45,407 nt of DNA, from positions 1-45,407 of the forward strand of contig JACRPT010000013.1 in assembly GCA_016223045.1 (NCBI GenBank), read 5' to 3'. The position numbers were made by a program, and so were the translations under genes. Shown here piece by piece: positions 2,096 through 18,667 of this stretch (positions are counted from its first letter, which is position 1; each line of letters opens with the position of its first letter). Source of the DNA: Candidatus Eiseniibacteriota bacterium. Lineage in GTDB: Bacteria; Eisenbacteria; RBG-16-71-46. The notes under the pieces are model-generated. The model worked only from the letters and a program-made list of their open reading frames with translations. It did no database searches and was not told the origin of the DNA.

Positions 2096-3240
2096 CCCGC
2101 CCGCCCTCCCTGGACCCGGCGCGGATCGAGCGCGTCGCGCAGCCCGTCGCCGAGGAAGTTGAACGCCATCACCGTGAGGAAGATGGCCGTGCCCGGAGCG
2201 TACAGCAGCCACGGGAAGGACGTGAGCACGCGCAGGCTCCGCGCCTGCGCCAGCATGTTCCCCCACGAGGCCGCGGGCTCCTGGACGCCCACGCCCAGGA
2301 ACGACAGGAACACCTCGCCCAGGATGTATCCCGGGATCGCGATGGTGGCCGCCACGACCACGAACGACAGGGTGTTGGGCAGGATATGGCGCGCGATGAT
2401 ACGCAACCGCCCCATCCCCAGGGCCTCGGCCGCCGCCACGAAGTCCTGGCGCCGGATGGAGAGCACCATGCCGCGGATGATGCGGGCCAGCGCCGCCCAG
2501 CCGATCAGGGCCAGGATGGCGACGATGGCCAGATAGACCTGCTGGCTCGGCAGGTCGGAGGGGAACACCGCGCGCAGCGCGATGATCAGGTAGAGCCCGG
2601 GGATGCTCAGCAGCAGCTCGGTGGCGCGCATGATGACGGTGTCCACCCAGCCGCCGAAGTACCCCGAGACGCCGCCCAGGAGCAGCCCCAGCGTGAACGA
2701 GATCGCGATGCCCAGGATCCCCACGGTGAGCGAGACCTGGGCGCCGAACAGCAGCCGCGAGAGCTCGTCGCGGCCGAAGGCGTCGGTGCCCATGACGTAG
2801 ACGCGCGCGGGCGGCTGCGCGCCGAACAGGTGGCGGTCGGTGCGGAGCACGCCGAGCAGGCGGTAGGGGGCGCCGTGCACGAAGAAGCGCAGCGGCACGG
2901 CCCGCTGGCGCTGCTCGCGGTACTCGAAGCCCGCCTCCGCGGCCCGGGTGGCGTAGACGAACGGCCGGAGGTGGACCCGCCCCGCGCCGTCGCGCCAGTG
3001 GAGCCGCTGGGGCGGATGGAAGAAGCGCATGCGGTCCATCTCGTCCTGCGGGTAGGGGGCGACGAAAGGCGCGAGCAGCGCGGCCGCGTAGAACGCCGCC
3101 AGCAGCGCCGCGCCCGCCACGGCGAGCGGACTGCGGCGGAACGCGCGCCAGAAGAGCCGCGCCGGCGACCGCGGCGGGAGCGCCGCGCCGCCCTCCTCGA
3201 TCGCGGCCGGCGGCGGGCCGCAGGGCGCGCGTTCAGTCAT
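2092..3240 (-). CDS. dppC: Peptide ABC transporter permease, DppC/OppC type
   Basis: This inner-membrane permease (382 aa) has an N-terminal OppC-type segment with one transmembrane helix (about residues 38-60). A roughly 110-residue periplasmic insert follows, then the BPD_transp_1 core. The EAA loop is visible as [18 protein letters not shown], and the conserved [20 protein letters not shown] block precedes the core. It overlaps dppB by 8 nt and dppD by 4 nt, so the five dpp genes are translationally coupled or nearly so. The insert between the first helix and the TDAFGRD block is longer than in classic DppC (about 300 aa total), which accounts for the extra length. This is common in environmental lineages. 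Confidence 0.92.
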
Positions 3241-4201
3241 GGACGATCCGCGGGTCGGCGACCGCGAGCAGCAGGTCGGCCACCAGGTTGCCGAGCACGA
3301 GCACCACCGACGCCATCAGCACCGAGCCCATCACCAGGTACTGGTCCTGGGATTGGATGGCCTCGTAGGTGATGCGCCCCAGTCCCGGCCAGGAGAAGAT
3401 GATCTCGGCCACCAGCGAGCCCGAGACCAGCGAGCCCAGGGTGTAGCCGAACAGCGTGATGAGCGGGTTGACGGCGTTGCGCAGCGCGTGCTTGAACACC
3501 ACCGTGCGCTCGTCGAGCCCCTTGGCGCGCGCGGTGGTGACGTAGTCGAGCTGCAGCACGTCGAGCAGGTTGGCGCGCATCTGGCGCATGCGCCCGGCAA
3601 GCGGCGTGAGTCCCACCACCAGCGCCGGGAGGGCGAGGTGCCGGAGCAGGTCGAGCGCCTTGCCCGCCGCGTCCAGCTCGGACCAGGCCAGCGAGCGCAT
3701 CCCGCCCACCGGGAACCAGCCGGTGCGCGCGGCGAGCATCAGCAGCAGCAGCCCGGAGAGCACCTCGGGCACGGAGAGCCACACGAACGCCAGCAGCGAG
3801 AGGCCGCGGTCCACCGCGCGGTTGTGCCGCATCCCCGCCCACACGCCGAGCGGGATGGCGAGCCCCCAGGTCACGATTGCCGCGGTGGCGGCGAGCAGCA
3901 GGGTGTTGAGCAGTCCCTCGCGCAGCACCGTGAAGACCGGCTGCTGGCGCGAGAACGACTCGCCGAAATCGAGATGGAGGAACAGGTTCCTGAGGTAGAG
4001 CGCGTACTGCACGAACCACGGGCGGTCGAGGCCGAAGCGGTGGCGCATGGCCTCGAGCGTCCGGGCGGAGACCTGCGGGTTCTCCGCCACGGTGTTCATG
4101 AAGTCCCCCGGCGCCAGCTGCAGCAGCAGGAAGGTCAGCGCCGAGATGCCGAGCAGGAGCGGGAGGAGCTGGAGCAGGCGCCGGAGGACGTAGGTGCGCA
4201 T
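3233..4201 (-). CDS. dppB: Peptide ABC transporter permease, DppB/OppB type
   Basis: This inner-membrane permease has 322 aa. It begins with the family-typical MRTYVLRRLLQLLPLLLGIS first helix, followed by the periplasmic segment with FGLDRPWFVQYALYL and DFGESFSRQQPV. The core has the EAA-like loop (DYVTTARAKGLDERTVVFKHALRNA) and a last helix ending in the usual ADPRI. Its ATG lies 10 nt after the dppA stop. It pairs with dppC to form the translocation channel. Confidence 0.93.
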   Translation of the reverse strand: MRTYVLRRLLQLLPLLLGISALTFLLLQLAPGDFMNTVAENPQVSARTLEAMRHRFGLDRPWFVQYALYLRNLFLHLDFGESFSRQQPVFTVLREGLLNTLLLAATAAIVTWGLAIPLGVWAGMRHNRAVDRGLSLLAFVWLSVPEVLSGLLLLMLAARTGWFPVGGMRSLAWSELDAAGKALDLLRHLALPALVVGLTPLAGRMRQMRANLLDVLQLDYVTTARAKGLDERTVVFKHALRNAVNPLITLFGYTLGSLVSGSLVAEIIFSWPGLGRITYEAIQSQDQYLVMGSVLMASVVLVLGNLVADLLLAVADPRIVHD

Positions 4202-4211
4202 CGGCGCGGGT

Positions 4212-6029
4212 TCAGGTCCTGCGGGTGCCCGGCTTTGCGAAGATGCGATCGCTGTTCCAGAGCAGGCGGTGCGGGATGACGCTCGGCTGGATGTTCCCGA
4301 ACCCGTTCCGCACCGGGAGCTTCACGCGGATGGTGGGCAACATGACGGACCAGCACTGCTCGCCCATGATGCGCTCGATCCCCTCCAGGGCCGCGCGGCG
4401 CCTCTCCATGTCGGTGGTCGAGACGAGCTGGTCGAACAGCGAGTCCACGTGCGCCTCCTCGGGCGTGCCGGGCGCCGGCTGCCTCATGTGCCAGTAGTGC
4501 GTGGCCCCGCTGGAGCGGAAGAAGTTCGGACCCATGCCCGGGTCCGGCGGGATCGCCGCGCCCAGCCCGCCCAGGATGGCGTCGTACTGGAAGTCTCCGC
4601 GGATGTTGCTGATCAGCGTGTTGAAGTCCACCCCCGCGGGGACGCAGCGGATGCCGACCCTGGCGAGGTCGTCCTTGATGAAGTTCGCGATCGCGATGCG
4701 GACCACGTTGTCGCCGTTGGTCTTCAGCGTGAAGCTCACGGCGTGTCCGCCGGCGTCCTCGAGCACGCCGTCGCCGTTGCGGTCGCGGAAGCCGAGCTTC
4801 GCGAGCAGCTGCTTCGCGCGCGCCGGGTCGTAGTCGTAGGGCGAGACGTAGCCGGTGTAGAACTGCCGGTACCCCGGGGTCATGATGGACCAGTTCTTCA
4901 CTGCGTCGCCGAAGAACACGCTGCGGATGATGGCATCGCGGTCCACCGCCATCGAGACCGCGCGGCGGAAGTCGGGGCTCGAGAACCAGGCGTACTTGAC
5001 CGGGCCCACCACCGGGCTCCCCGCCCGCTTCCCGCGCTTCGCGTCCTTCACGGTGTTGAGGTTGAACCAGAAGAAGTTGCTGGTGAGCCCGGGGCCCAGG
5101 TCGTAGAGCGTGAAGTCGCCCCGCTTCTGGTTCGCGGCGTAGCGCTCGTAGTCCTCGGGCTTCACGTTGTCGAGCCCGTCCACGTCGCGCGACTCGAACT
5201 TCAGCACGGCCGTGTTCTGGTCCGGCACCACCACCCACACCAGCTCGTCCAGGTAGGGCAGCCGCCGGCCCTTCGAGTCCACGCCGAACCAGTACGGGTT
5301 GCGCACCAGGACGGTCTTCTCCTTGGCCACGAACTGGCCGACCCGCCACGGCCCGCTGGTCACGATGCTGTCGGGCGGCGCGCTCACGCCGTAGGCCGAG
5401 GCGAAGCGGCCCGCGCGGTACGCGGGCTCCAGCACGTGCCGGGGCATGATGCGCAGCGACCCCACCGCCGGGATCACGAGCGCGTAGGGCTTCGGGATCG
5501 TCGTCACCACGGTGAAGGAGTCGGGCGCCGAGACCTCGATCTTCTCCCCGTCGATGGTGAGCAGGTCCTGCACCGAGGGATGGAGCGTCGAGTCGTAGGC
5601 CACCTCGAAAGAGAACAGCACGTCCGCGGAGCTGATGGGGTGGCCATCCGAGAACGCCGCGCCACGCCTGAGGTGCCAGGTCCACGTGAGCCCGTCCGGG
5701 CTCACCTCCCAGCGCTTCGCCAGCATCGGGGTGATGCTCTGGGTGGCGTTGTCGAACTCGGTCAGGCTGGTGAACAGGCGGTCGTCCACGTCGGTGGACG
5801 AGGTCTCGTTCGCGAGCATCACGTTGAAGGTCTTGGGATCGGTGGTCTGCCCGAGCACGAAACGGCCGCCGTAGCGGCCGGTCTCGGGCATCGCGAACGT
5901 CATGGTGTCGGGGGGCAGCGGGTGGGTGTCGCGGAACGCTCCCGCGGAGCCGGACGGGCCACCGCAGCCGGCCGCGGCGAGACCGAGGCCCAGCGCGGCG
6001 CAGGTCAGATACACGGCCCTTCGATTCAT
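4212..6029 (-). CDS. dppA: Peptide-binding lipoprotein of ABC transporter (SBP family 5)
   Basis: This is the extracytoplasmic substrate-binding protein (605 aa, SBP_bac_5 family) that feeds the permease pair encoded downstream. The N-terminus MNRRAVYLTCAALGLGLAAAGC is a lipoprotein signal peptide with lipobox AAGC (Cys22). The family body is recognisable in stretches such as PDGLTWTWHLRRGAAFSDGHP, VAYDSTLHPSV and RRAVSMAVDRDAIIRSVFFGDA. A near-consensus promoter at 6080-6109 and a strong AGGAGG-type ribosome site just before the ATG make this the first gene of the operon. A family-5 protein of this size usually binds peptides, but some members bind nickel, opines or sugars, so the ligand is inferred. 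Confidence 0.92.
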   Translation of the reverse strand: MNRRAVYLTCAALGLGLAAAGCGGPSGSAGAFRDTHPLPPDTMTFAMPETGRYGGRFVLGQTTDPKTFNVMLANETSSTDVDDRLFTSLTEFDNATQSITPMLAKRWEVSPDGLTWTWHLRRGAAFSDGHPISSADVLFSFEVAYDSTLHPSVQDLLTIDGEKIEVSAPDSFTVVTTIPKPYALVIPAVGSLRIMPRHVLEPAYRAGRFASAYGVSAPPDSIVTSGPWRVGQFVAKEKTVLVRNPYWFGVDSKGRRLPYLDELVWVVVPDQNTAVLKFESRDVDGLDNVKPEDYERYAANQKRGDFTLYDLGPGLTSNFFWFNLNTVKDAKRGKRAGSPVVGPVKYAWFSSPDFRRAVSMAVDRDAIIRSVFFGDAVKNWSIMTPGYRQFYTGYVSPYDYDPARAKQLLAKLGFRDRNGDGVLEDAGGHAVSFTLKTNGDNVVRIAIANFIKDDLARVGIRCVPAGVDFNTLISNIRGDFQYDAILGGLGAAIPPDPGMGPNFFRSSGATHYWHMRQPAPGTPEEAHVDSLFDQLVSTTDMERRRAALEGIERIMGEQCWSVMLPTIRVKLPVRNGFGNIQPSVIPHRLLWNSDRIFAKPGTRRT

Positions 6030-6150: not shown

Positions 6151-6936
6151 TCAGGACGCGGCGATCGCGTCTCCGAGCAGGACGAGCCCGGCGGCGCCGG
6201 CGAGCCGCCGGGTCCCGGGTGGAAGCTCCGCGGCGAGCGCGTCGGCCCAGCGCTCGAGCGGCGCGTCGGCGCCCAGCCACGCCCCGGCGTGCGCGGAGGC
6301 CAGCCGCAGCTCCTCGCGCACCCGGGCGCGGGCCTCCCCGGCGGACGCCAGGTACCCGGCGAGCCGCAGGTGGCCCTCACCGAGCAGCACGCTCCCCTGC
6401 TGGAGGAGCGCGCGGCCGGTGCGCCGCTGGGCACTCCCCACCAGCTTGCGACCGGCCAGCACGATCTCGTGGCGCGCGGTCGAGGCGAAGCAGGGCGCCG
6501 CCGCGTCGCCGCTCAGGCGCGGGGCGAGGCCGCCGCGCGCGCCAGAGGCGCGGGCCAGCTCCGCGGGCACGCCGAGCCGCACCAGCGACGCCACCAGCAG
6601 CCGCGACACGCGGTCGTAGGCCTCGGTCAGGCTCCCGCCCCACCCGGGGTGGTCGAGCGGCGCGGCGAACGCGCAGGTCCATTCCTCGGCGTGGAAGATG
6701 GCGCGGCCGCCGGTGGGGCGCACCGCCCACGGCACGCCGTCGCGGCGGCAGCGCTCGAGGTCCAGCTCCCGGTCCGGCCGCTGGGCGTGGCCCAGGGTGA
6801 TGCCGTGCGGCGCGAAGCGGAACAGGCGGAGCACCGGCTCGCCGGCGCCGGCGTCCGAGCCCGCCGCGGCGAGCAGCGCCCGGTCGCGGCGCATGTTCTC
6901 GCCCGGGTCGTGCGCCCCATCGCACCAGAGGATCAA
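6151..6936 (-). CDS. lipM: Octanoyltransferase / lipoate-protein ligase family protein, LipM-like
   Basis: The protein (261 aa) belongs to the BPL/LplA/LipB fold. It has the RPTGGRAIFH loop that contacts the acyl-adenylate or acyl chain, then PCFAST (Cys149) and AGRKLVGSAQRR (Lys164), then LLQQGSVLL. A cysteine at this place is the hallmark of the LipM/LipL transferases, rather than the ATP-dependent LplA ligases, so I favour octanoyl transfer from acyl carrier protein to lipoyl domains. The TTG start at 6936 has GGAG six bases upstream, and the gene follows the 224-aa membrane gene by only 28 nt, so it is likely co-transcribed with it. The obvious client in this window is GcvH (17157-17546). 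LipA is not seen here. Confidence 0.78.
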   Translation of the reverse strand: MILWCDGAHDPGENMRRDRALLAAAGSDAGAGEPVLRLFRFAPHGITLGHAQRPDRELDLERCRRDGVPWAVRPTGGRAIFHAEEWTCAFAAPLDHPGWGGSLTEAYDRVSRLLVASLVRLGVPAELARASGARGGLAPRLSGDAAAPCFASTARHEIVLAGRKLVGSAQRRTGRALLQQGSVLLGEGHLRLAGYLASAGEARARVREELRLASAHAGAWLGADAPLERWADALAAELPPGTRRLAGAAGLVLLGDAIAAS

Positions 6937-6964: not shown

Positions 6965-7639
6965 TCAGCGGAGCCCCAGCCAGTCCCCGATCAGGTACTG
7001 GAAGCGCCCGATGAGGAGCGAGACGCGCGACATCACGGTGTAGCCGTAGCCGGCGCCGAAGGAGACCATGAGGAACACGATGCCGACCCGGGAGACCGCG
7101 CCGAGCGCGCCCTTGTGCTCGCGGCTGAAGAAGAAGAACAGCAGCGAGGCGATGAGCCCCACGGTGAAGACGATGGCGCTCAGGTCGGCGCCCGGGCCGT
7201 GGCCCCACAGCGGCCGGAGACTGCCCTGCAGCTGGGCCACGAAGTCGCCCTGGGCGAACCCGGTGGTCTTGAGCCCGGCGTAGACGCCGATGATGACCGC
7301 CAGCGACCAGCGCGACAGCCAGCCGATCCGACGGATCAGGCGGGTGAAGAGCAGCAGCCCGAGCAGGCCCGGCAGCAGCATCCAGCCGCGGTAGTCGCCG
7401 AGCGAGGCGGCGAACGGCGGGCCGGCCTTGCCGCTGAAGGCGTGAACCAGCGGATCCCACAGGTTCGGCACCACCACGGTCCAGAAGTTCAGGATGATGT
7501 AGTAGCCCGCCGACACGCCCACGAACAGGTGCTCGGCGAACTTGTAGAACGGGTTGTCCTTGTAGAGGAAGCTGAAGATGAAGAGCGTGAGCAGCGCCGC
7601 CACCCACACGCCGAAGTCGTGGCTCACGTGGAGGCTCAC
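6965..7639 (-). CDS. Uncharacterised polytopic membrane protein (fourth gene of membrane cassette)
   Basis: This 224-aa protein has about six predicted transmembrane helices, at roughly residues 11-28, 32-54, 86-105, 108-126, 150-170 and 183-203. Short soluble loops include YKDNPFYKFAEHLFVG between the first two helices. The GTG start at 7639 overlaps the previous stop (GTGA); an internal GTG at 7627 is an alternative. I do not recognise a named family with a function. The EHLFVGVSAGY region and the conserved aromatic/charged loops suggest a genuine conserved family. Its fixed place behind three other unknown membrane genes suggests a subunit of a multi-protein inner-membrane complex. Confidence 0.78.
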   Translation of the reverse strand: MSLHVSHDFGVWVAALLTLFIFSFLYKDNPFYKFAEHLFVGVSAGYYIILNFWTVVVPNLWDPLVHAFSGKAGPPFAASLGDYRGWMLLPGLLGLLLFTRLIRRIGWLSRWSLAVIIGVYAGLKTTGFAQGDFVAQLQGSLRPLWGHGPGADLSAIVFTVGLIASLLFFFFSREHKGALGAVSRVGIVFLMVSFGAGYGYTVMSRVSLLIGRFQYLIGDWLGLR

Positions 7640-8463
7640 GCCGCGTCCCTCCGGCGCCGCGTCCACTGGACGACGTTGCCGAGCACGATGCACAGGGCGA
7701 TGAACACGTGGGCCATGGACTGGGCGTCCATGCCGTGCGTCGCCGTTCCCTGCTCGTGGCGCAGCTTCTCGTACTCGGCGGCGCCCGCCATGCCGCCCAG
7801 CAGCCCGCGCAGCTGCCCGCTCTGCAGGTACGGGTAGAACTCCGGCGCGCTCACCGCGGTCACGCCCGCCACGATCGGGATGTGGAAGCGGCCCTGGACC
7901 TGCTGCACGTACTCCTTGGTGCCCGGGTAGCCGGCCGAGATGCTGATCAGCAGCGGGAAGCTCGAGTAGTCGCGCACCTCGCGCATGATCGGGAAGCTGC
8001 GCGTGGGGAGCCCGCCGTTGTCGCGCGGGAACGCGTTCGCGATGCCCTGGCCCATGAGCACCATGACCGCCTCGTTGCCCGCTTTGTAGCCCAGGTTGAT
8101 GTAGTCCACGCCGTAGACCCGGTGCTTCTCCTGCCCCACGCCGCGCAGCACCTGCTCCACCAGGCCGGCCCCGCCGTTCCACAGCACGGTCGCCACGACC
8201 TTGCAGCGCTTGTCGAACAGCTGGCGCAGCGTGGTCTCGGTCATCGGCACCAGCTCGGGCCGCGAGGCCGGGTCGTAATCGCACGACATCAGCACGGTGC
8301 AGCCGTCCGGAAGCTGCGCGATGGCGTCGTGGTAGCCCCGCACCGGGGGCGACACGTAGAGCGGCAGGCCGAGCGGCCAGAGCAGCGGGATGAGCACCAG
8401 CAGCCCGACGCCCAGGAAGATCCAGCGGCGATCCAGCTTCTCCAGCGACGGCAGCGGGCTCAT
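7636..8463 (-). CDS. Uncharacterised membrane-anchored protein with extracytoplasmic or cytosolic alpha/beta domain
   Basis: The protein (275 aa) has an N-terminal helix (about residues 14-37), a soluble domain of roughly 200 residues and a C-terminal helix (about 245-265) followed by RRRR. By the positive-inside rule both termini are cytoplasmic and the domain is outside. The domain has ordered alpha/beta character with notable blocks: LMSCDYDP, YINLGYKAGNEAVM, FPRDNGGLPTRSFP, GVTAVSAPEFYPYLQSGQLRGLLGG. None is a catalytic motif I can name. The start lies 3 nt after the 216-aa gene, and the stop overlaps the next start by 4 nt. Confidence 0.8.
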   Translation of the reverse strand: MSPLPSLEKLDRRWIFLGVGLLVLIPLLWPLGLPLYVSPPVRGYHDAIAQLPDGCTVLMSCDYDPASRPELVPMTETTLRQLFDKRCKVVATVLWNGGAGLVEQVLRGVGQEKHRVYGVDYINLGYKAGNEAVMVLMGQGIANAFPRDNGGLPTRSFPIMREVRDYSSFPLLISISAGYPGTKEYVQQVQGRFHIPIVAGVTAVSAPEFYPYLQSGQLRGLLGGMAGAAEYEKLRHEQGTATHGMDAQSMAHVFIALCIVLGNVVQWTRRRRDAA

Positions 8464-8466
8464 GGC

Positions 8467-9117
8467 CTACTCCTCCCCGCTCAGGTAGGAGCGCTCGATG
8501 CCGAGGATGACGCGCAGCCCGGTGGCCATCACCCCGAGCGCGGCCCCGATCAGGATGGCGCGCTTCGCCGCATTCTGCGGGACGTCCATGATCCACTCCT
8601 GGATCCCCTGCAGGCGCAGCGGCTCGGGCAGCCAGTGGGTCCACGCGTTGCCGATCGGGACGCGGCCCAGCATCACCAGGATCGCCGCGAGCGCCAGCAA
8701 CCCGGCCTCGAGCGTGCGGATGCGGAAGGCGCGGAACGCGGCCGAGGCGATGAAGAACGCCAGCAGCGCGAACATGGTGGCGGACATCGGCGAGTAGACC
8801 TGGTTGTAGATCCACATGAAGCGCGTGCCCTCGGACTGGAAGCCGCGCCCCTCGATCGCGCCGATGGCCAGCGTGGCGAGCAGGCTCGCCGCCAGCACGA
8901 GCTTGTACGGCCAGTCGGGCCGGCGCCGGTAGATGCCGTCGAAGTTCACGCGCAGCACGTTCGCGCCGCCCAGCACGTAGCCGAACGCGACGACGATCAC
9001 GGCGCTCTGCTGTAGGAAATCGGCGGGCACGCTGACCGCCTGGTGCGGCACGAAGAACGACAGGATCATGAACAGGCCGATCGCCGCGGTGACGAACAGC
9101 GGGAGCTCGCGCTTCAC
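8467..9117 (-). CDS. Uncharacterised six-helix membrane protein (second gene of membrane cassette)
   Basis: The protein (216 aa) has six predicted transmembrane helices, at about residues 5-25, 38-58, 68-90, 108-130, 136-154 and 183-206. The loops carry ADFLQQS, RVNFDGIYRRRPDWPYK and MWIYNQVYSPMSATMF. No transporter or enzyme signature is visible. The first and last loops suggest both ends are cytoplasmic. It begins 13 nt after the FN3/DUF6754-type gene and ends 3 nt before the next start, so it is firmly part of the cassette. Confidence 0.8.
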   Translation of the reverse strand: MKRELPLFVTAAIGLFMILSFFVPHQAVSVPADFLQQSAVIVVAFGYVLGGANVLRVNFDGIYRRRPDWPYKLVLAASLLATLAIGAIEGRGFQSEGTRFMWIYNQVYSPMSATMFALLAFFIASAAFRAFRIRTLEAGLLALAAILVMLGRVPIGNAWTHWLPEPLRLQGIQEWIMDVPQNAAKRAILIGAALGVMATGLRVILGIERSYLSGEE

Positions 9118-9130
9118 CGGCGTCCCCCCG

Positions 9131-10333
9131 TCATTGCGTGATCATCCAGCGCGTGAGCTCGTGGACGCCGAAGGACTCGAGCACGCAGCCCGCGAGGATG
9201 ATGGCGACCAGCACGATCTTCATCAGGTCCGCCCCCTTGAGGCTGCCGACCAGCTTGGGCTCGCCCGACAGGTAGGCGCTCGCGGCGTAGAGCTCCTCGC
9301 CGATCAGCGTGTAGTCGCACGCCACCACGAAGAACGGGAGCTGGTGCACGTTCGCGGTGCCCGCGACCTGGATGGCGCCGGTCGCGAACCCGGTCTCGGC
9401 GAGCAGCAGCGACTCGGCGAAGAACGAGCCCATGAAGATGTGCGCGGCCGGCTGGTCGCGCATCATGATGCCGGTGATGGAGGCCACGTACGCGAACTGC
9501 TCGGGCGACACGAACTGGACGCTGTCCGGGTCGTAGCGGTCGGGCCGGCCGGCGTGCAGGTAGCCGCCGCGCACCATCTCCTCGGCGATTGCGAAGGGGA
9601 TCGGGTAGGTCACCGGCACCTTGAGCGGGGTCTCGTACTTCGCGGTGAGCCTGGCGACGCTCTCGAGGATGATCAGGGCCTGGACGGTCTGGATCTCGTC
9701 GATGTCCTGGATGCCCGGCACGTAGAGCACCGAGCGCCCCATCTCGGTGGCGCGTCCGATCGCCTCCTCGATGGCGTCGATGCCGGGGATGCGGCGCACG
9801 AACGGCTTCTTCCCCGACTGCGCGCTGGCGATGTAATAGAGCACGAAGCCGAAGAACAGCATGGTCAGCACCAGCACGCTCCAGCGCGTGCCGTTGAACC
9901 ACTGCGAGGTGGCCACCACCGGTCCGGTCACGCTGCCGGCCGGCGTGCGCCCGCCGGGCCCCGCCGCGATGACGCGGTAGAAGTACTCGATGCCGCGCAG
10001 CAGGGTCTGGTCGCTGAAGCTCGTGACACCCGCGGCGACCGAGTCCACCACGGTCCACGGGCCGCCCGGGTTGAGCGAGCGCTCGATCTGGTAGCCGCGG
10101 ACCACCGGGTCTCCCCGGCGATCGTCCGCGGAGGGCTCCCAGTCGAGCTCCACCGCCCGCCCCGCGTCGTTGGGGACGTCGCGCCACACCAGGCCCGCGG
10201 CGGGCCGGGGCGCGGGAGTCGCCGGCGCGGCGGCGGCGGCGGGGGGATCGGCCGCGCCCGCGGGCGACGCCGGCCCGACGAGCGCGAGCGCCAGCAGCGC
10301 GGCCGCGCTCAGCCCCGCCACGGGGTATCGCAA
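9131..10333 (-). CDS. Secretory FN3-domain membrane protein with DUF6754-like core (first gene of membrane cassette)
   Basis: The protein (400 aa) has these parts in order: a signal peptide (about 1-27, ending AGAA), a proline/alanine linker, a fibronectin type III-like domain (about 47-145, with VVRGYQIERSLNPGGPW and IEYFYRVIAAGPGG), a transmembrane helix (about 151-169), a roughly 200-residue domain (RRIPGIDAIEEAIGRATEMGR through LVGSLKGADLM), and a second helix (about 371-387). The core resembles proteins annotated DUF6754, recalled rather than searched. The TTG start at 10333 is supported by GGAGG six bases upstream and by the signal peptide. Its own promoter lies at 10449-10478. Function is unknown. 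The FN3 module suggests contact with other extracytoplasmic parts. Confidence 0.82.
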   Translation of the reverse strand: MRYPVAGLSAAALLALALVGPASPAGAADPPAAAAAPATPAPRPAAGLVWRDVPNDAGRAVELDWEPSADDRRGDPVVRGYQIERSLNPGGPWTVVDSVAAGVTSFSDQTLLRGIEYFYRVIAAGPGGRTPAGSVTGPVVATSQWFNGTRWSVLVLTMLFFGFVLYYIASAQSGKKPFVRRIPGIDAIEEAIGRATEMGRSVLYVPGIQDIDEIQTVQALIILESVARLTAKYETPLKVPVTYPIPFAIAEEMVRGGYLHAGRPDRYDPDSVQFVSPEQFAYVASITGIMMRDQPAAHIFMGSFFAESLLLAETGFATGAIQVAGTANVHQLPFFVVACDYTLIGEELYAASAYLSGEPKLVGSLKGADLMKIVLVAIILAGCVLESFGVHELTRWMITQ

Positions 10334-10512: not shown

Positions 10513-11634
10513 TCACGAGGCGATGATCTCGACGTTGGCGCGCGGCACCACGGCGACCGCGTCGCCCTCGACGAAGCGGACCACCAGCACCCGAACCAGC
10601 GCCTCGGTGTCGAGGCGGCGCAGCTCGCTCGGCAGCTCGACCACCTTGCCGATGCGCCCGAACCACGGCTCGCGGATCACGCGCAGCAACGAGCCGACCT
10701 CGAGGCCCGCCACGGATTCCTCGTGCGTCGCGGCCGGCTCGCCGCCACCCGGGATGATGATCTCGGGCCGCAGCACGCCGGCGCGGATCTGGGTCGCCCC
10801 GCTCACCGAGGCGAGCCGCCCCTGCCGCGCGGCCAGCAGTTCCCAGGTGCGCTCGGCCATGCGGATGCGCCCGAAGCCCTCGGTGAGCACCAGCGTGAGG
10901 CCGATCTCCTCGGAGCCGGTGACGGCGACGCCGAGGTCGCGGCCCAGCAGGCGGCGCAGGTCGGCGTCGTCGAAGCCACCCGCCACCACCGCGGCCACGC
11001 CCAGCTCGCGCGCGCGCGCCAGCGCGTCGAAGGACACGTGGCAGCCTCCCACCACCACCATGCCGCGGTGCTCCGGGCGCAGCCGGTACGGCGTGAGCTC
11101 GTCTCCCGGGCTTTCGACCGCCGCGACCAGCTCGCCCCAGGCCTCTCCACCCACGCCGAAGATGCCCTGCACCAGCGCGCCGCGCGCTTCCACCACCACG
11201 CCCTCCCCCGGCAGGACCGCGGTCACCACGCCCCGCAGGTAGGCGCAGACCTCGACCGGGAGCGGCGGTTCGCGCAGGATGAGCTGCCCGGTGACGCGCG
11301 AGACGCTCTCGATGGTGCCGTCGGCGGGCGCGGCCACGGTGTGGCGCGCCAGGCCGAACAGGCCGCGGGCGGTGGCGATCGGCTGCCCCTTGCGCACCGC
11401 CGCCCCCACCGGGCACGCCAGCGTCTCGGGCACCTTCGCCGGGTCCACCGCCAGCCGCGCCGCCAGGTTCACGGTCTGGACGTTGCCCGGCAGCCGGGTG
11501 CGCGCCACCACCGTGCAGGGCTCCACGGCATCCCCCACGGCGGCCAGCACGTCGCCGCGCAGCGGGAGGCGGCGCTCGCGATGGATCAGCGCGGACCCGG
11601 TGACGCGCAGGCCGGGCGTGTATCCGTGGGCCAC
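10513..11634 (-). CDS. Uncharacterised protein with barrel-sandwich-like N-terminus and C-terminal KOW motif, glmL-linked
   Basis: The protein has 373 aa. Residues about 85-120 (VGAAVRKGQPIAT and VAAPADGTIESV) look like a barrel-sandwich hybrid of the RnfC/lipoyl type, but without a lipoylation lysine in the usual turn. The middle has VVVGGCHVSFDALARARELGVAAVVAGG. The C-terminal part has a KOW-like stretch, GSLLRVIREPWFGRIGKVVELP. The GTG start at 11634 is chosen because a GGGGAGGTG ribosome site precedes it and it lies 2 nt after the glmL stop; the longer frame (from 11676) would overlap glmL. KOW motifs often bind RNA or ribosomal proteins, but nothing here proves that. I do not know a function. 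Its strict coupling to glmL suggests they act together. Confidence 0.8.
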   Translation of the reverse strand: MAHGYTPGLRVTGSALIHRERRLPLRGDVLAAVGDAVEPCTVVARTRLPGNVQTVNLAARLAVDPAKVPETLACPVGAAVRKGQPIATARGLFGLARHTVAAPADGTIESVSRVTGQLILREPPLPVEVCAYLRGVVTAVLPGEGVVVEARGALVQGIFGVGGEAWGELVAAVESPGDELTPYRLRPEHRGMVVVGGCHVSFDALARARELGVAAVVAGGFDDADLRRLLGRDLGVAVTGSEEIGLTLVLTEGFGRIRMAERTWELLAARQGRLASVSGATQIRAGVLRPEIIIPGGGEPAATHEESVAGLEVGSLLRVIREPWFGRIGKVVELPSELRRLDTEALVRVLVVRFVEGDAVAVVPRANVEIIAS

Positions 11635-11636
11635 CC

Positions 11637-13451
11637 TCACACCTCCCCGGGGTAGACGCCGAGCGCGTGGTTCCACGCGCGCAGGCGCCCCCTGCGCTCG
11701 TCCGGGTCGGCGGGCAGGGCGAACGGCTGACGGCCTCGGCAGTCCACGATCAGCCCCACCACGCCGCCCGGCAGCTCGGCCTCGAGCGGGCGGCCGCGCC
11801 CGTGGCCCAGGTCGAAACCACGCTCGGGAGTCGCGGTGAGCCGGGCCGCGGCGCCCGGCGGCGGCAGCGGCAGCAGCACCAGCTCGCCGAAACGCACGCG
11901 CCGCATGAGCGAGGGCTCGCCGGGCGCGTGCAGCTCGGCCGTCAGGCAGTGCTGCCGCGCGTTGCCCGGGCCCACCGGGGCGAGGACCGCGCCAAGGCGC
12001 ACCAGGCAGTCGCGCTCGAACACCTGGGCGGCGGCCGCCTCGTGCACCTGCGAGAGCACGCCCAGCTGGGGCATCATGAAGATGCTGTCCACCGCGAGCT
12101 GCGTCAGCCCCTCGGGCAGGAACGCGTCCACCATCATGAGTGCCGCCTGCACCCGGCGCGGCGCGTGCGACAGCACGCCCCCCGAGCCCACCAGCAGGCC
12201 CAGCTCCGCCAGGTCCACCAGGGACGCGCCGGTCTCGGTCTGCGCCATCACGTCCGAGATGGTGCGCTGGCTCTGCACCCCCTTGAGGCCGACCGCCAGC
12301 GCCTTGTGCTGCTCGAAGGCCAGGCGCAGCGCCTCGCGCGCGATGGCCTGCTCGATCACCAGGTCCTCGAGCTGCTGCGGGACGGTGGTCGGCCGGATCA
12401 TCTTGTTCTTGATCCGGTTCCGCAGGTCGGTCTCCTCCACCGCGAACGGCACCCAGCGCAGGATGTTCTCGATCCCGGTCTCGGCCATGACGTTCGACAC
12501 CGAGTAGCTCATCCCGAGGTTGGCCGAGACCGTGCGGTTGAACACGCCCCGGAACACCGAGAACACGTCGGTGGTGGCACCGCCGATGTCCACGCCCACC
12601 ACCGACAGGCGGGCGCGCCGCGCCACCTCCTCGATGATGAGGCCGACCGCGCCGGGCGTGGGCATGATGGGGACCGGCGACCAGGTCATGAGCTTCTTGT
12701 ACCCGGGCGCGTGGGCCATCACGTGCTCCATGAACAGCTCGTGGATGGCATCGCGGGCGGGCTTGAGGTTCTCGCGCTCGAGCTCGGGCCGCAGATTCGG
12801 CACCGCGGTGAACGCGGTGCGCTGCGCCAGCAGCCCGCTCACCACCGGGGTCGCGTCCTGGTTGCCGGCGTAGATCACCGGCAGCTGGTAGCCGGCGCCG
12901 AGCCGCGCCTTCGGGTCGGCCGCCACCAGCATCTCCGCCAGCTCGGCGACGCGGCGCACCTCGCCGCCGTCCGTGCCGCCCGAGAGCAGGATCATGTCGG
13001 GTCGCAGCTGGCGCAGCCGCCGGATCTTCTCGTGCGGGCGGCGCCCGTCGTTCAGGGCGATCACGTCCATCACGATGGCGCCCGCGCCGAGCGCCGCGCG
13101 CTGCGCGCTCTCCCCCGTCATCTGGAGCACCAGGCCGGTGACCGCCATCTGCAACCCGCCGCCGGCGCTCGAGGTGGACAGGTAGAGGTCCACGCCGGCG
13201 TCGCCGCGGCGCGGCGTGAGGATGCGTTCGCCGTCCAGCAGGCGGCGGCCGGCCAGCTCCTCGACCTCGCGCACCGCGTTCAGGACGCCGCGCGTGACGT
13301 CTTCGAACGGGGCCTCGACGGTGGTCGGAGCCTCGCCCCGCGCCACCAGCCGGTAGCCCTCCGCGCGCTGCTCGATGAGGATGGCCTTGGTGGTGGTGGA
13401 ACCGCAGTCGGTGGCGAGGATCGAGTGGATGCTCTCGGGCCGGATCTCCAT
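11637..13451 (-). CDS. glmL: GlmL/MutL family ASKHA ATPase
   Basis: The protein has 604 aa and belongs to the 'glutamate mutase L' family of actin/Hsp70-like (ASKHA) ATPases. Phosphate-1 is at residues 14-22 (TDCGSTTTK) and phosphate-2 at about 286-298 (VGVDIGGATTDVF). Other family landmarks are STSSAGGGLQMAV, LLSGGTDGG, YAGNQDA, TPGAVG and GSGGVLSHAP. Glutamate mutase L is named for its place beside the B12-dependent mutase subunits and is thought to be a chaperone or reactivase. No glutamate mutase S/E or other B12 mutase gene is present in this window. The gene starts 11 nt after the 128-aa gene and ends 2 nt before the KOW gene, in an operon with glycine cleavage genes. Confidence 0.88.
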   Translation of the reverse strand: MEIRPESIHSILATDCGSTTTKAILIEQRAEGYRLVARGEAPTTVEAPFEDVTRGVLNAVREVEELAGRRLLDGERILTPRRGDAGVDLYLSTSSAGGGLQMAVTGLVLQMTGESAQRAALGAGAIVMDVIALNDGRRPHEKIRRLRQLRPDMILLSGGTDGGEVRRVAELAEMLVAADPKARLGAGYQLPVIYAGNQDATPVVSGLLAQRTAFTAVPNLRPELERENLKPARDAIHELFMEHVMAHAPGYKKLMTWSPVPIMPTPGAVGLIIEEVARRARLSVVGVDIGGATTDVFSVFRGVFNRTVSANLGMSYSVSNVMAETGIENILRWVPFAVEETDLRNRIKNKMIRPTTVPQQLEDLVIEQAIAREALRLAFEQHKALAVGLKGVQSQRTISDVMAQTETGASLVDLAELGLLVGSGGVLSHAPRRVQAALMMVDAFLPEGLTQLAVDSIFMMPQLGVLSQVHEAAAAQVFERDCLVRLGAVLAPVGPGNARQHCLTAELHAPGEPSLMRRVRFGELVLLPLPPPGAAARLTATPERGFDLGHGRGRPLEAELPGGVVGLIVDCRGRQPFALPADPDERRGRLRAWNHALGVYPGEV

Positions 13452-13462
13452 GGGTCTCCGCT

Positions 13463-13849
13463 TCAGGGAGTGCGGGGGGCCCGCCGCGCGGCGCCTCGGG
13501 CCACGGGCGGGGTGTTCGCCGCCTGCCGCCCGGGGCCCGCGCCGGGCGCGCGTTCGCGGCGCCTCGCGCGCGCTTCGTCGGCCTGCGTCTCGATCAGGCG
13601 GGCCAGGGTCTCGAGCGCATCGCGGCGCTCGAGCAGCAGCGCCAGCCGCCGGTACTCGGTGAGCCGCAGCAGCGACTGCGCCAGCGGCTCGAAGAAGATC
13701 ATGGCCTGGCTCGCCAGCAGCGAGAGCGGGCGGCAGCTCTCGAGCGTCAGCACCGCCGGGACCTCGAGCCTCAGCTCGACCACGCGGGCGGCCACGCGCT
13801 CGAACAGCGCGAGGTCCGCGGGGGCGAGCGCCGGCTCGCTAGAGGCCAC
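13463..13849 (-). CDS. Small uncharacterised helical protein preceding glmL
   Basis: The protein (128 aa) is predicted to be almost entirely helical. The core runs from LALFERVAARVVELRLEVPA through TLESCRPLSLLASQAMIFFE to YRRLALLLERRDALETLARL, with a disordered Arg/Pro/Ala tail. It is amphipathic rather than clearly transmembrane, although the SLLASQAMIFFEPLAQSLL stretch is hydrophobic enough to touch a membrane. The GTG start at 13849 overlaps the previous gene by 11 nt; the longer frame upstream is only a shadow of that gene. The patterned conservation-like core argues that it is real. No function is known to me. Its position suggests an accessory factor for GlmL. Confidence 0.7.
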   Translation of the reverse strand: MASSEPALAPADLALFERVAARVVELRLEVPAVLTLESCRPLSLLASQAMIFFEPLAQSLLRLTEYRRLALLLERRDALETLARLIETQADEARARRRERAPGAGPGRQAANTPPVARGAARRAPRTP

Positions 13850-14309
13850 GGCGCGCCAGCCTCGGCTCGAGCTCCGATCGCAGCCGCTCGCTCTCGCCGA
13901 GCGGGAACGGCAGGACGAGCGCACGCCAGGGGTCGAGCCAGTGCGGCCGCGCGTGGGGTGAGAGCAGCAGCCCGGCGCGCCGGCGCACCGCGCGGCGGAC
14001 CTCGCGCCAGGCGCGGCGGTCGCGCCCGAACGGGCCGCTGCGGGCCGCGCCCTGTTCGTCCACCCGGCACCGCGCCGGGGCCAGCAGCGGCGAGAGCGAG
14101 GCGAGCGCGGCCAGGCACAGCGCGAAGGTCAGGAGGACGGGTTCCCGGAGGCTCGCCAGCGCCGCGCACATGGCGAGACCGAGCGCCGCCGCCAGCGCCG
14201 AGCGCGCCGGGCGCTCCCGCCAGGGGTTGAAGGACCACTCGACCGGCGCGTCCGCCGACGGCGCCGGCGCGGGCCGGGGGCTGGTGTCCGGCCGCGCGGT
14301 CAGCGGCAA
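13839..14309 (-). CDS. Small two-helix membrane protein downstream of gcvPB
   Basis: The protein (156 aa) has a proline-rich N-terminus, the phrase EWSFNPWRERP, two adjacent transmembrane helices (about residues 38-57 and 59-78) and a soluble tail of about 70 residues (CRVDEQGAARSGPFGRDRRAWREVRR, then SPHARPHWLDPWRAL and FPLGESERLRSEL). The tail layout resembles small bacterial PH-like domains fused to two helices, but this is only an impression. The likely TTG start at 14309 overlaps the gcvPB stop by 10 nt. Another alternative start downstream is possible. The function is unknown. Confidence 0.65.
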   Translation of the reverse strand: MPLTARPDTSPRPAPAPSADAPVEWSFNPWRERPARSALAAALGLAMCAALASLREPVLLTFALCLAALASLSPLLAPARCRVDEQGAARSGPFGRDRRAWREVRRAVRRRAGLLLSPHARPHWLDPWRALVLPFPLGESERLRSELEPRLARRGL

Positions 14310-15801
14310 GTCGTGGACTCCCGTGCCGCGGGCGCCTCGCCGCGCGCCCCCGGATCCCACTTGAGCCGCAGCTCCCGCGCGGCGCGCCCCTCGTCGAGCC
14401 GGCCCACCGGCGTGGTGTGTGGCGCGTCGCGCAGGAGCTGCGGGTGGTCGCGCGCCTCGGCCGCGATCCGCTCCATCACCCCGGCGAAGTGGTCGAGCCG
14501 GTCGAGGGTCTCGGTCTCGGTGGGCTCGATCATCAGCGCCTCCTCGACGATCAGCGGGAAGTAGACGGTGGGAGCATGCACGCCGAAGTCGAGCAGCCGC
14601 TTGGCCACGTCCAGCGTCCTGACCCCGTGCTTCCTGAGCCCGCGGCCGGAGAGCACGAACTCGTGCATACAGGGCTCGGGGTGCGGCAGCTCGTAGGTCC
14701 CGGCGAGGCGCCGCATCAGGTAGTTGGCGTTCAGCGTCGCGACCTTGCTCACCTCGCGCAGCCCCGCCGGGCCGAGCGTGAGGATGTAGGCCAGCGCGCG
14801 CACCAGGATGCCGAAGTTGCCGTTGAAGGAGTGGACCCGGCCGATGGACTGCGGCCGCTCCCAGTCCAGCCGCATCCGCCCGTCGGGTCCGGTCACCGCC
14901 AGCGGCACCGGCAGGAACGGCTCGAGGTGCCTGGCCACCGCCACCGGTCCGGCGCCCGGGCCGCCGCCGCCGTGCGGGGTGGAGAAGGTCTTGTGCACGT
15001 TGATGTGCATGACGTCGAAGCCCAGGTCGCCCGGACGCACCCGGCCCACCAGCGCATTGAGGTTGGCGCCGTCCATGTAGCACTGCGCCCCGGCCCGGTG
15101 GGCCAGCCGCGTCACCTCGAGCACCTGCGGCTCGAACAGGCCGAGCGTGTTCGGCACCGTCAGCATGACCGCCGCGGTGCGGTCGTCGAGCGCCTGCTCG
15201 AGCGCCTCCAGGCTCACCGTGGCGTGGTCGCCGGAAGCGACGACGACGGTCTCGTAGCCCACCAGGTTCACGCTCGCCGGGTTGGTGCCGTGCGCGGAGT
15301 CGGGGACGATCACGCGGCGGCGCCGCTCCCCTTCGCCGCGCGCGCGGTGGTGCGCGCGGATCAGCAGCAGGCCGGTCAGCTCGCCGTGCGCTCCCGCGGC
15401 GGGCTGCGTCGTGACCGCGGCGAACCCGGTGATCTCCGCGAGCAGCCGCTGCACCGTGGCCATCACCCTGAGGCAGCCCTGCGTCGCCCCGTCCCCCGCC
15501 AGCGGGTGCGCCTGGGTGAAGCCCGGCAGCGCGGCCAGCTCGTCGTTGATCCGGGGGTTGTGCTTCATGGTGCAGGAGCCGAGCGGATAGAAGCCGCGGT
15601 CCACGTGGTGGTTGAGCGTCGAGAGCTCGATGAAGTGCCGCACCACCTCGGGTTCGGTCACCTGCGGGAAGCGCAGCTCGCCCCGGAGCGGGACGCCGGG
15701 CAGCAGCTCGGCCAGCGGGCGCGCCGGCACGTCGCAGGCGGGCAGCGCCGGGCCGCGGTGCCCGGGTCCGCCCTGCTCGATCAGCAGTCTGCGCTCCGCG
15801 C

Positions 15802-15805
<4 letters not shown>
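14300..15805 (-). CDS. gcvPB: Glycine dehydrogenase (decarboxylating) subunit 2
   Basis: This is the PLP-binding half (501 aa) of the two-subunit P-protein of the glycine cleavage system. With GcvPA it decarboxylates glycine and passes the aminomethyl group to lipoyl-GcvH. The PLP lysine is Lys272 in NVHKTFSTPHGGGGPG. Other hallmarks are YPLGSCTMKHNPR, QPAAGAHGELTG, PDSAHGTNPAS and MDGANLNALVG. The ATG at 15805 overlaps the gcvPA stop (ATGA). This subunit is complete, but its partner carries an in-frame stop. Confidence 0.95.
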
Positions 15806-17156
<1,351 letters not shown>

Positions 17157-17160
<4 letters not shown>

Positions 17161-17546
17161 GCGTGCTGCTCCTCCACGAGCTTCTCGTAGTCCACGCTCG
17201 ACAGGAGCTTCTCCAGGTCGTGCGGGTTCGCGGGCTTGAGCCGGATCATCCAGCCCTCGCCGAACGGGTCCTGGTTCACCAGCGCCGGGTTGTCGGCGAG
17301 CGCGGCGTTCACCTCGAGCACCTCGCCGGCCAGCGGGGCGAACAGGTCGCTCACCGTCTTGACCGCCTCGACCACGCCGAAGGCCTTCCGGGCCTCGAGC
17401 TGCTTCCCCGCCTCGGGCAGCTCCACGAACACCACGTCCCCGAGCTGGTCGGTGGCGTAGCTCGTGATGCCGACCGTCACCACCCCGCCCTCCAGGCGGG
17501 CCCACTCGTGCTCCGGCGTGTAGCGGACGTCATCGGGGAAGGCCAA
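17157..17546 (-). CDS. gcvH: Glycine cleavage system H protein
   Basis: This small lipoyl-carrier protein (129 aa) shuttles the aminomethyl group between the P and T proteins. The start region DDVRYTPEHEWARLEGG, then GITSYATDQLGDVVFVELP, and GVVEAVKTVSDL with the lipoylated Lys63, are textbook GcvH. The TTG start at 17546 is supported by a GAGGAGG ribosome site five bases upstream and by the usual length. It lies 11 nt after the gcvT stop and overlaps gcvPA by 4 nt. It is the probable substrate of the LipM-like enzyme at 6151-6936. Confidence 0.95.
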
Positions 17547-17557
17547 GCGAACCTCCT

Positions 17558-18667
17558 CTAGGAGCGGCGCGAGCCGCGCGTCCAGAACGGACGTGGCACG
17601 ATGCGCGCGCTCAAACGCGCCCCGCCCGCGATCACCTCCAGCGTGCCGCCGGGTCGGTCGAGGGCGCTCTCCACGTAACCCATGCCGAGCGGACGCTCGA
17701 GGCTCGGGCTGAACGTGCCGCTCGTCACTCGTCCCGCCGGACGTCCGCCGGATTCGATCGGCATCCCATGGCGCGGCACGCGCCGGCCGTCGAGCTCGAA
17801 GCCCACGAGCCGGCGCGCGAGCCCCTGCTCCTTCTGGCGGAGCAGCGCGTCGCGCCCGGTGAAAGCCTCCTTCTTCAGCTTCACGGTCCAGCCCAGCCCC
17901 GCCTCGAGCGGCGTGGTGGTGTCGTCGATGTCGTTCCCGTAGAGCATGTAGCCCATCTCCAGCCGCAGCGTATCGCGCGCGCCCAGGCCCACCGGCTCGA
18001 GTCCCGCCGCCGCCCCCGCCCGCACGATCCCCTCCCACACCTGCGCGGCGAAACGCGGGTGGAAGTAGAGCTCGAAGCCGTCCTCGCCGGTATAGCCGGT
18101 GCGGGAGATGACAGCCGGGGCGCCGAAAGCGGGGCCCTCCATGAAGCGGTAGAAGCCGAGCTGGAGCGCGGCCTCGGGCAGGTGGCCCTTCAGCGCCTGC
18201 TCCGCCTTCGGACCCTGGATCGCGAGCAGGGCGGTCTCGTCCGAGAGATCGGTGAGCGCGACGCCCGGCGGCGCCTGTTCCCTGAGCCAGGCGAGATCCT
18301 TCGCGGTGGTGGAGGCGTTCACGACCAGCATGAAGTGGTCGGCGAAGCGGTAGACCAGCAGGTCATCCACGATGCCGCCATCGGGGCGGCACATCGGTGT
18401 GTAGATGGCCTGCCCGACCTCCATTCCCAGCACGTCGTTGGTGACGGCGCGGTGGATGAACTCAGCCGCGCCGGGTCCGGCGACGCGGAACTCGCCCATG
18501 TGCGTGATGTCGAACATCCCCACGGCCTCGCGGACGACCCGATGCTCGTGCACGTCTCCGGTATACCGCAGGGGCATCTCGAAGCCGGCGAACTCCACCA
18601 GCTTCGCTCCGGCCGCGCGGTGGAAATCGTAGAACGGGGTGCGCTTCGAGGTGGTGGTGGGTTGCAC
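17558..18667 (-). CDS. gcvT: Aminomethyltransferase (glycine cleavage T protein)
   Basis: This tetrahydrofolate-dependent T protein (369 aa) releases ammonia and forms methylene-THF from aminomethyl-GcvH. It has FAGFEMPLRY, MFDITHMGEFRV, NDVLGMEVGQAIYTPMC, GGIVDDLLVYR and ISRTGYTGEDGFELY in the family order, and the C-terminal barrel with TSGTFSPSLERPLGMGYV. The GTG start at 18667 gives the normal N-terminus (TPFYDFHRAAGAKLVEFAGFE). Only a weak ribosome site is visible. It is the first gene of the gcv/glmL operon, behind the promoter at 18697-18725. I looked for a glycine riboswitch in the leader and did not find one. Confidence 0.95.
   Translation of the reverse strand: MQPTTTSKRTPFYDFHRAAGAKLVEFAGFEMPLRYTGDVHEHRVVREAVGMFDITHMGEFRVAGPGAAEFIHRAVTNDVLGMEVGQAIYTPMCRPDGGIVDDLLVYRFADHFMLVVNASTTAKDLAWLREQAPPGVALTDLSDETALLAIQGPKAEQALKGHLPEAALQLGFYRFMEGPAFGAPAVISRTGYTGEDGFELYFHPRFAAQVWEGIVRAGAAAGLEPVGLGARDTLRLEMGYMLYGNDIDDTTTPLEAGLGWTVKLKKEAFTGRDALLRQKEQGLARRLVGFELDGRRVPRHGMPIESGGRPAGRVTSGTFSPSLERPLGMGYVESALDRPGGTLEVIAGGARLSARIVPRPFWTRGSRRS

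What the first reader, a model, noticed from the sequence alone, without database searches (positions are those of the whole stretch)
6965..10333. Four-gene membrane cassette of unknown function with an FN3-bearing lead protein
Four consecutive genes encode an exported FN3 plus DUF6754-like protein, a six-helix protein, a protein with a ~200-residue domain between two helices, and another six-helix protein. Spacings are 13 nt, 3 nt and a 4-nt overlap, behind a TTGACA promoter, so the products are probably one stoichiometric inner-membrane complex with a large extracytoplasmic face. None of the four shows a transporter, secretion or enzyme signature that I know. Next to a GlmL-type ATPase operon on the same strand, it is the best candidate here for an undescribed machine.
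Basis: partly seen in the sequence, partly recalled or inferred. Interest (0 to 1): 0.75.

Follow-up and report, generated by a model that had tools for sequence, protein, structure and literature searches.

The report
Undescribed four-protein bacterial membrane complex
Four neighbouring genes make parts of one inner-membrane machine that is kept, always as a set, across many little-known bacterial phyla and has no known relative, so it is probably an unstudied basic piece of their cell biology.

Summary
The quartet is real: A (FN3 + DUF6754), B (6 TM), C (TM–domain–TM) and D (6 TM), at the stated coordinates and spacings. I found no described relative; only A's DUF6754 (PF20539, unnamed function) and its FN3 match anything. 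It is widespread: in 45 of 47 genomes of its phylum (Ca. Eisenbacteria relatives) and in many other uncultured phyla plus Planctomycetota and Marinimicrobia, with 1–7 paralogous quartets per genome, and retained in genomes below 1 Mb. I recovered 226 complete A-B-C-D sets. Among 244 planctomycete-phylum genomes A and C occur in exactly the same 83, even where the genes lie megabases apart. Coevolution gives a clear B–D helix contact, so a physical complex is well supported. The unit is larger than reported: a MutL/GlmL-family ATPase, a partner protein E (single full-length copy in every genome checked; fused to MutL in some) and a small protein F belong to it. A's domain is predicted cytoplasmic and C's periplasmic, so 'a large extracytoplasmic face' is only half right. 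Best guess: a two-sided membrane complex, probably a transporter, assembled or activated by the MutL–E ATPase. Complex: well supported. Transport: inference only.

The parts
9131..10333 (-). A: signal peptide + FN3 (out) + TM + DUF6754 Rossmann-like domain (predicted in cytoplasm) + C-terminal TM; 400 aa
   Evidence: PF20539 E=5e-113; AF2 mean pLDDT 91; FN3 by PDB profile and fold; homologues in 45/47 genomes of the phylum
8467..9117 (-). B: six-TM protein, predicted N-in/C-in; 216 aa; TM3 start contacts D
   Evidence: alignment A2; positive-inside counts; coupling B74-D34
7636..8463 (-). C: TM + ~205-residue Rossmann-like domain (predicted periplasmic) + TM; 275 aa; invariant E70, D120, Q217, E232, H252, N263
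   Evidence: AF2 mean pLDDT 95.8, pTM 0.91; no PDB match by sequence or convincing match by fold; conservation
6965..7639 (-). D: six-TM protein, predicted N-out/C-out; 224 aa (GTG start, 4-nt overlap with C)
   Evidence: alignment A4
10513..11634 (-). E: barrel-sandwich-hybrid (weakly RnfC_N/NqrA_N-like) + Rossmann-like + KOW-like protein; start corrected to the GTG at 11634 from homologues
   Evidence: alignment A7; Pfam on a relative; one full-length copy in 33/33 genomes
11637..13451 (-). MutL/GlmL-family ASKHA ATPase, 604 aa
   Evidence: PF13941 E=4e-125; next to E and A-B-C-D in many phyla; MutL-E fusions
13463..13849 (-). F: small conserved protein, ~128 aa, no Pfam family
   Evidence: alignment A8, 18 sequences; same place in 24 of 28 clustered loci
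13839..14309 (-). Small conserved ~156-aa protein upstream of F; a protein at the matching place in L199 is weakly bacterial-PH-like (below cut-off)
   Evidence: family of 17 loci at the same place; Pfam on L199 protein; window copy has no Pfam hit
6151..6936 (-). Lipoate-protein ligase (neighbour, conserved position in Eisenbacteria and several other phyla, probably not part of the machine)
   Evidence: PF21948 E=5e-24; 23 loci
14300..18667 (-). Glycine cleavage genes gcvT, gcvH, gcvPA (in-frame stop), gcvPB (neighbours)
   Evidence: Pfam

Best explanation
A, B, C and D form one obligate inner-membrane complex. B and D, predicted to sit in the membrane with opposite orientations, pack against each other as the helical core (contact shown by coevolution). 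A holds a Rossmann-like domain on the cytoplasmic side plus an optional outside FN3 domain; C holds a domain of very similar layout on the periplasmic side. The MutL-type ATPase and protein E act as one cytoplasmic unit (fused in some lineages); E is present in a single full-length copy however many quartets a genome has, so they most likely use ATP to assemble, activate or reset all the quartets, as related ASKHA ATPases do for their partner enzymes. The most likely job of the membrane part is passing a small polar solute or ion between the two binding-domain faces; different paralogous quartets would handle different solutes. Shown: conservation, obligate co-occurrence, B-D contact, MutL-E fusion, copy numbers. 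Inferred: topology, ATP coupling, transport, substrate class.
For: Fixed order A-B-C-D in 226 recovered sets. A and C in the identical 83 of 244 genomes; D in 81 of these (the two misses have A near a contig end); E in 78 of the 83. In G084, G165 and G190 the genes are dispersed, e.g. A at 294 kb, D at 2,303 kb, C at 3,526 kb of one contig, yet all are kept. Coevolution: B74-D34 z=15 against null maxima up to 7.7, with ladder B71-D30, B78-D38, B82-D42, recovered in four half-samples; C-D, C-B and A-C clusters also exceed six null runs each. One full-length E in 33/33 genomes holding 1-7 quartets. MutL-E fusions. Invariant D/E/Q/H residues; in C conservation concentrates at strand C-termini, p=0.03.
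Against: No transporter signature and no convincing fold match for C; the A model's fold search was swamped by FN3, so a known fold for DUF6754 is not excluded. Sequence profiles do not link A with C or B with D. The test whether couplings of A and C favour same-side loops of B and D was negative (p = 0.6-1). A-B coupling is within the null. About half of the collected loci have no MutL/E near the quartet, and five planctomycete-phylum genomes have A and C but no detected E.
Confidence: 0.4

Rival explanations
1. A signalling or sensor complex: FN3 and C's domain bind an outside ligand or partner, B and D relay the change across the membrane, and A's cytoplasmic domain passes it to E-MutL.
For: Domains on both faces; FN3 optional (missing in many Marinimicrobia-phylum homologues); many paralogues per genome; varied neighbourhoods.
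Against: No output domain known from signalling; single-copy retention in genomes below 1 Mb, where sensors are usually lost; 12 membrane helices in B and D are more than a relay needs.
Confidence: 0.2
2. A redox-driven ion pump related to Rnf/Nqr: E as the RnfC/NqrA-like peripheral subunit, B and D as an inverted six-TM pair like RnfA/RnfE.
For: E of relatives has weak RnfC_N/NqrA_N barrel-sandwich hits (E=2e-4 and 0.03, below cut-offs; TIGR01945 E=0.014); B and D each six TM with opposite predicted orientation; neighbours include NADH- or flavin-yielding enzymes.
Against: Only one conserved Cys (A C339) in all four proteins and none in B, C or D; no flavin, Fe-S or haem motif; no Pfam/NCBIfam hit of B or D to Rnf/Nqr.
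Confidence: 0.08
3. A secretion, surface-assembly or motility machine energised by the MutL ATPase.
For: FN3 is common in exported surface proteins; some loci lie next to TonB-type, ExbB/D-like or large exported proteins (read from sequence, not from family searches); B of one planctomycete group carries a ~350-residue insert between TM3 and TM4.
Against: No pore, pilin, outer-membrane or chaperone-like partner recurs; neighbourhoods of quartets without MutL are unrelated to each other.
Confidence: 0.12
4. A membrane accessory of glycine cleavage/lipoate metabolism, as the window's neighbours suggest.
For: gcvT-H-PA-PB, F, MutL, E, A-B-C-D, lplA recur in that order in Eisenbacteria and, in part, in Fermentibacteria, Aegiribacteria and other loci.
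Against: Most quartets elsewhere, including Planctomycetota and Marinimicrobia, are not near these genes.
Confidence: 0.08

Closest known systems
DUF6754 (Pfam PF20539)
   Same: A matches it over its full length, 377 bits against a cut-off of 27.
   Different: The family has no function, and no paper in the held library names it; nothing there describes B, C or D or the set.
MutL/GlmL family ATPases (PF13941; GlmL, Or-4)
   Same: The window's 604-aa protein covers the whole PF13941 profile, E=4e-125.
   Different: Well below the GlmL and Or-4 equivalog cut-offs (223 of 475 and 208 of 600 bits); partnered with E and a membrane quartet; no B12 mutase among its annotated neighbours.
Rnf / Na+-NQR complexes
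   Same: Peripheral subunit with a barrel-sandwich domain; six-TM pair of opposite orientation (analogy).
   Different: No conserved cysteines or cofactor motifs, no sequence match of membrane subunits.
FN3 domain
   Same: A's outside domain folds as FN3 (titin FN3 TM 0.79-0.81 by target).
   Different: Optional: missing in many Marinimicrobia-phylum homologues.

Membership tests
DUF6754 family (PF20539) | Full-length domain match above the curated cut-off | tested here: met
   376.8 bits vs 27, profile 2-255 of 257
MutL/GlmL family (PF13941) | Full-length domain match | tested here: met
   418.6 bits vs 27
GlmL (methylaspartate mutase accessory) | Score above the NCBIfam equivalog cut-off | tested here: not met
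   223.5 vs 475 bits
GlmL (methylaspartate mutase accessory) | B12 mutase in the same genome | not tested
   Only the annotated neighbours were looked at; no genome-wide search
Rnf/Nqr complexes | RnfC/NqrA peripheral subunit above cut-off | tested here: not met
   RnfC_N 21.5 vs 25.6 bits in a relative of E; TIGR01945 14 vs 246 bits
Rnf/Nqr complexes | Conserved Cys in the six-TM subunits binding an Fe-S centre | tested here: not met
   No conserved Cys in B or D
Anti-phage defence systems (PADLOC) | Match to any model | tested here: not met
   No hits for A-E or MutL
Any solved structure | Sequence or fold match to A's DUF6754, B, C, D or E | tested here: inconclusive
   Sequence: no significant hit. 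Fold: C best TM about 0.35; the A search is dominated by FN3; B, D and E were not modelled
ATP-dependent transporter | ATP-coupled solute movement | not testable with these tools
   Needs biochemistry

The most novel reading that the evidence does not exclude
A new class of membrane machine: an inverted pair of six-helix proteins carrying similar ligand-binding-type domains on opposite faces of the membrane, serviced by an ASKHA-fold ATPase, ancestral to much of the FCB/Planctomycetota region of the bacterial tree and unnoticed because common model bacteria lack it.
Probability: 0.4. Interest if true: 0.85.

Novelty: categorically new. Interest (0 to 1): 0.64.

Why it matters
A membrane complex kept as a set across a dozen or so phyla, amplified up to seven-fold per genome and still retained in sub-megabase genomes, is probably a core function that the biology of common model bacteria has missed. 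Because it also occurs on long single-contig chromosomes in the planctomycete phylum, at least some carriers are likely to be cultured and open to genetics. It also gives GlmL-type ATPases a possible role away from B12 enzymes.

Tried and rejected
A/C and B/D homology by profile comparison: none, although the helix/strand order of the A and C models matches one to one. PDB sequence searches with profiles: only FN3. Foldseek: C nothing convincing, A only FN3. Same-side coupling test for topology: negative. Common neighbours as a clue to function: glycine cleavage/lipoate ligase in some phyla, otherwise varied. Defence and phage libraries: nothing (one weak PHROG hit in A's FN3 region). Papers naming PF20539, DUF6754 or PF13941: none in the held library; the supplements of novel-family catalogues were not checked. 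A lipoylation role for E's barrel-sandwich domain was dropped: the window's E has no lysine at the hairpin (inference from alignment).
Full report
OBSERVATION. The four minus-strand genes exist as described: A 9131–10333, B 8467–9117, C 7636–8463, D 6965–7639, with 13-nt and 3-nt gaps and a 4-nt overlap. A is full-length DUF6754 (PF20539, 377 bits) behind a signal peptide and an FN3 domain that Pfam misses but PDB profile and fold searches show. B, C and D match no family in Pfam or NCBIfam above cut-off. The TTGACA box is real but TTGACA is not above chance in number in the window, and the box has no scored partner.

DISTRIBUTION. The nearest named relatives are Candidatus Eisenbacteria MAGs. 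PF20539 occurs in 45 of 47 genomes of the phylum, once in the own family and usually 2–7 times elsewhere, and in none of 14 control genomes. One of the two exceptions has C near a contig end (G024) and the other, 82% complete, has neither A nor C. A scan of GTDB contigs gave at least 566 relatives; the best 79 loci are from Eisenbacteria, Zixibacteria, Stahlbacteria/WOR-3, Latescibacterota, Edwardsbacteria, Poribacteria, Coatesbacteria, Fermentibacteria, Hyd24-12, Celaenobacter, Marinimicrobia, Gemmatimonadota- and Planctomycetes-labelled MAGs. In the phylum of L138 (Planctomycetaceae label) 83 of 244 sampled genomes carry it, including single-contig chromosomes of 7–8 Mb; in the phylum of L171 (Neomarinimicrobiota label) 97 of 149, including genomes of 0.7–1.0 Mb.

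A SET. Own gene calls and profile searches show A-B-C-D in this order in nearly every complete locus, 226 complete sets in all; some loci hold two or three quartets in tandem. Lone A copies (L115, L141, L152) exist, but the genomes of L141 and L152 hold further A and C copies elsewhere. The strongest evidence is in the planctomycete phylum: the genomes with A and the genomes with C are the same 83 of 244; D is found in 81, and in the two misses (G186, G223) the locus runs into a contig end. In several of these the genes are unlinked: E-A at one place and B-C-D or C-D at another, and in G084 A, D and C lie at 294, 2,303 and 3,526 kb of one contig. Shared inheritance of an operon cannot explain this; a shared function can. 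The sampled genomes are related to each other, so these counts are not independent events.

PHYSICAL CONTACT. From 213 non-redundant paired quartets (effective number 175) I ran mean-field direct-coupling analysis per protein pair, with within-clade shuffled pairings as null. B74–D34 stands at z=15; null maxima for this pair were up to 7.7. It forms a ladder with B71–D30, B78–D38 and B82–D42, and was first or second in four random half-samples. This is the pattern of two parallel packed helices, the start of B's TM3 and of D's TM2, with size-compensating residue pairs (V–F, F–I, A–L). Parallel packing of an odd helix of B with an even helix of D requires their N-termini on opposite sides, in agreement with positive-inside counts (B N-in; D N-out, less clear-cut). 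Weaker clusters exceed all six null runs for C–D (C187–D128), C–B (C267–B133), A–C (A384–C86) and, narrowly, A–D; A–B does not. A broader same-side test was negative, so only B–D is claimed as shown.

STRUCTURE. AlphaFold2 models are confident: C mean pLDDT 95.8, A 91.3. Both hold a six-stranded alpha/beta domain between two TM helices, with elements in the same order and similar spacing, though sequence profiles show no relation. By flanking charges A's domain is cytoplasmic (signal peptide, outside FN3, TM, then KKPFVRR) and C's periplasmic (DRR before its first helix, RRRR at its end): this corrects the 'large extracytoplasmic face'. C has no convincing fold match in the PDB (best TM about 0.35). 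Strictly conserved polar residues include A R180, R194, E197, E307, E313, Q322, D340, E346, E347 and C E70, D120, Q217, E232, H252, N263; in C, conservation is higher at strand C-termini (p=0.03), in A it is not.

THE MODULE IS LARGER. Upstream lie E, a MutL-family ATPase, F and a ~156-aa protein. The run MutL-E-A-B-C-D recurs in Eisenbacteria, Marinimicrobia-phylum and planctomycete-phylum genomes. E (59% mean column identity) has an N-terminal barrel-sandwich domain weakly like RnfC_N/NqrA_N, a middle part that looks Rossmann-like by sequence and a KOW-like end (on a relative). MutL and E are one gene in L171 and L195, and a second, diverged MutL–E fusion stands alone in several genomes. Every one of 33 genomes holding 1–7 quartets has one full-length E: E, and by its linkage MutL, look like a shared service unit rather than a fixed subunit; MutL copies themselves were not counted genome-wide. 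About half of the collected loci show no MutL or E close by, as expected if one unit serves several quartets.

MECHANISM. Steps shown: the set, its co-retention, the B–D contact, the MutL–E link, the copy numbers. Steps inferred: ATP-driven assembly or activation by MutL–E, by analogy with ASKHA reactivases (general knowledge of the family), and transport of a small polar solute, from two binding-type domains on opposite faces around a 12-helix B–D core with conserved charged residues near or in the membrane (C H252, D E36, B R129/R132). I give the complex about 0.85, the MutL–E partnership about 0.7, transport about 0.35. A redox pump is unlikely: one conserved Cys in the whole quartet.

KNOWN VERSUS NEW. 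Only A (PF20539) and MutL (PF13941) belong to named families; neither accession nor 'DUF6754' occurs in the held papers. MutL is not GlmL proper by cut-off. I file the quartet with no known system. Catalogues of novel families from uncultured taxa (PMC10849945, PMC9727166) may list the proteins without function; their supplements were not searched.

Noticed in passing
window 16342-16344 (-): gcvPA carries an in-frame TGA (GSPV*FGGPLLGFF); alignment to an intact relative runs through in one frame. Sequencing error, pseudogene or recoding not decided.
   Followed up: partly
window 2092-6029 (-): Dipeptide/oligopeptide ABC transporter genes (solute-binding protein, permeases) follow lplA; also in several Eisenbacteria relatives.
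   Followed up: no
L292, L294-L297: In one planctomycete group B carries a ~350-residue insert, repetitive in look, between TM3 and TM4.
   Followed up: partly
L304-L307, L309-L311: A second, diverged MutL-E fusion of ~820-990 aa (one copy cut to 664 aa by a contig end) standing alone in several genomes.
   Followed up: partly
L188, L193: In two planctomycete-phylum genomes E-A lies directly downstream of an FtsY-like gene.
   Followed up: no
A model residues 183-387 and C model residues 39-274 (window 9131-9787 and 7639-8349): One-to-one match in the order and spacing of helices and strands between A and C without detectable sequence similarity; possible ancient duplication with opposite topology.
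   Followed up: partly
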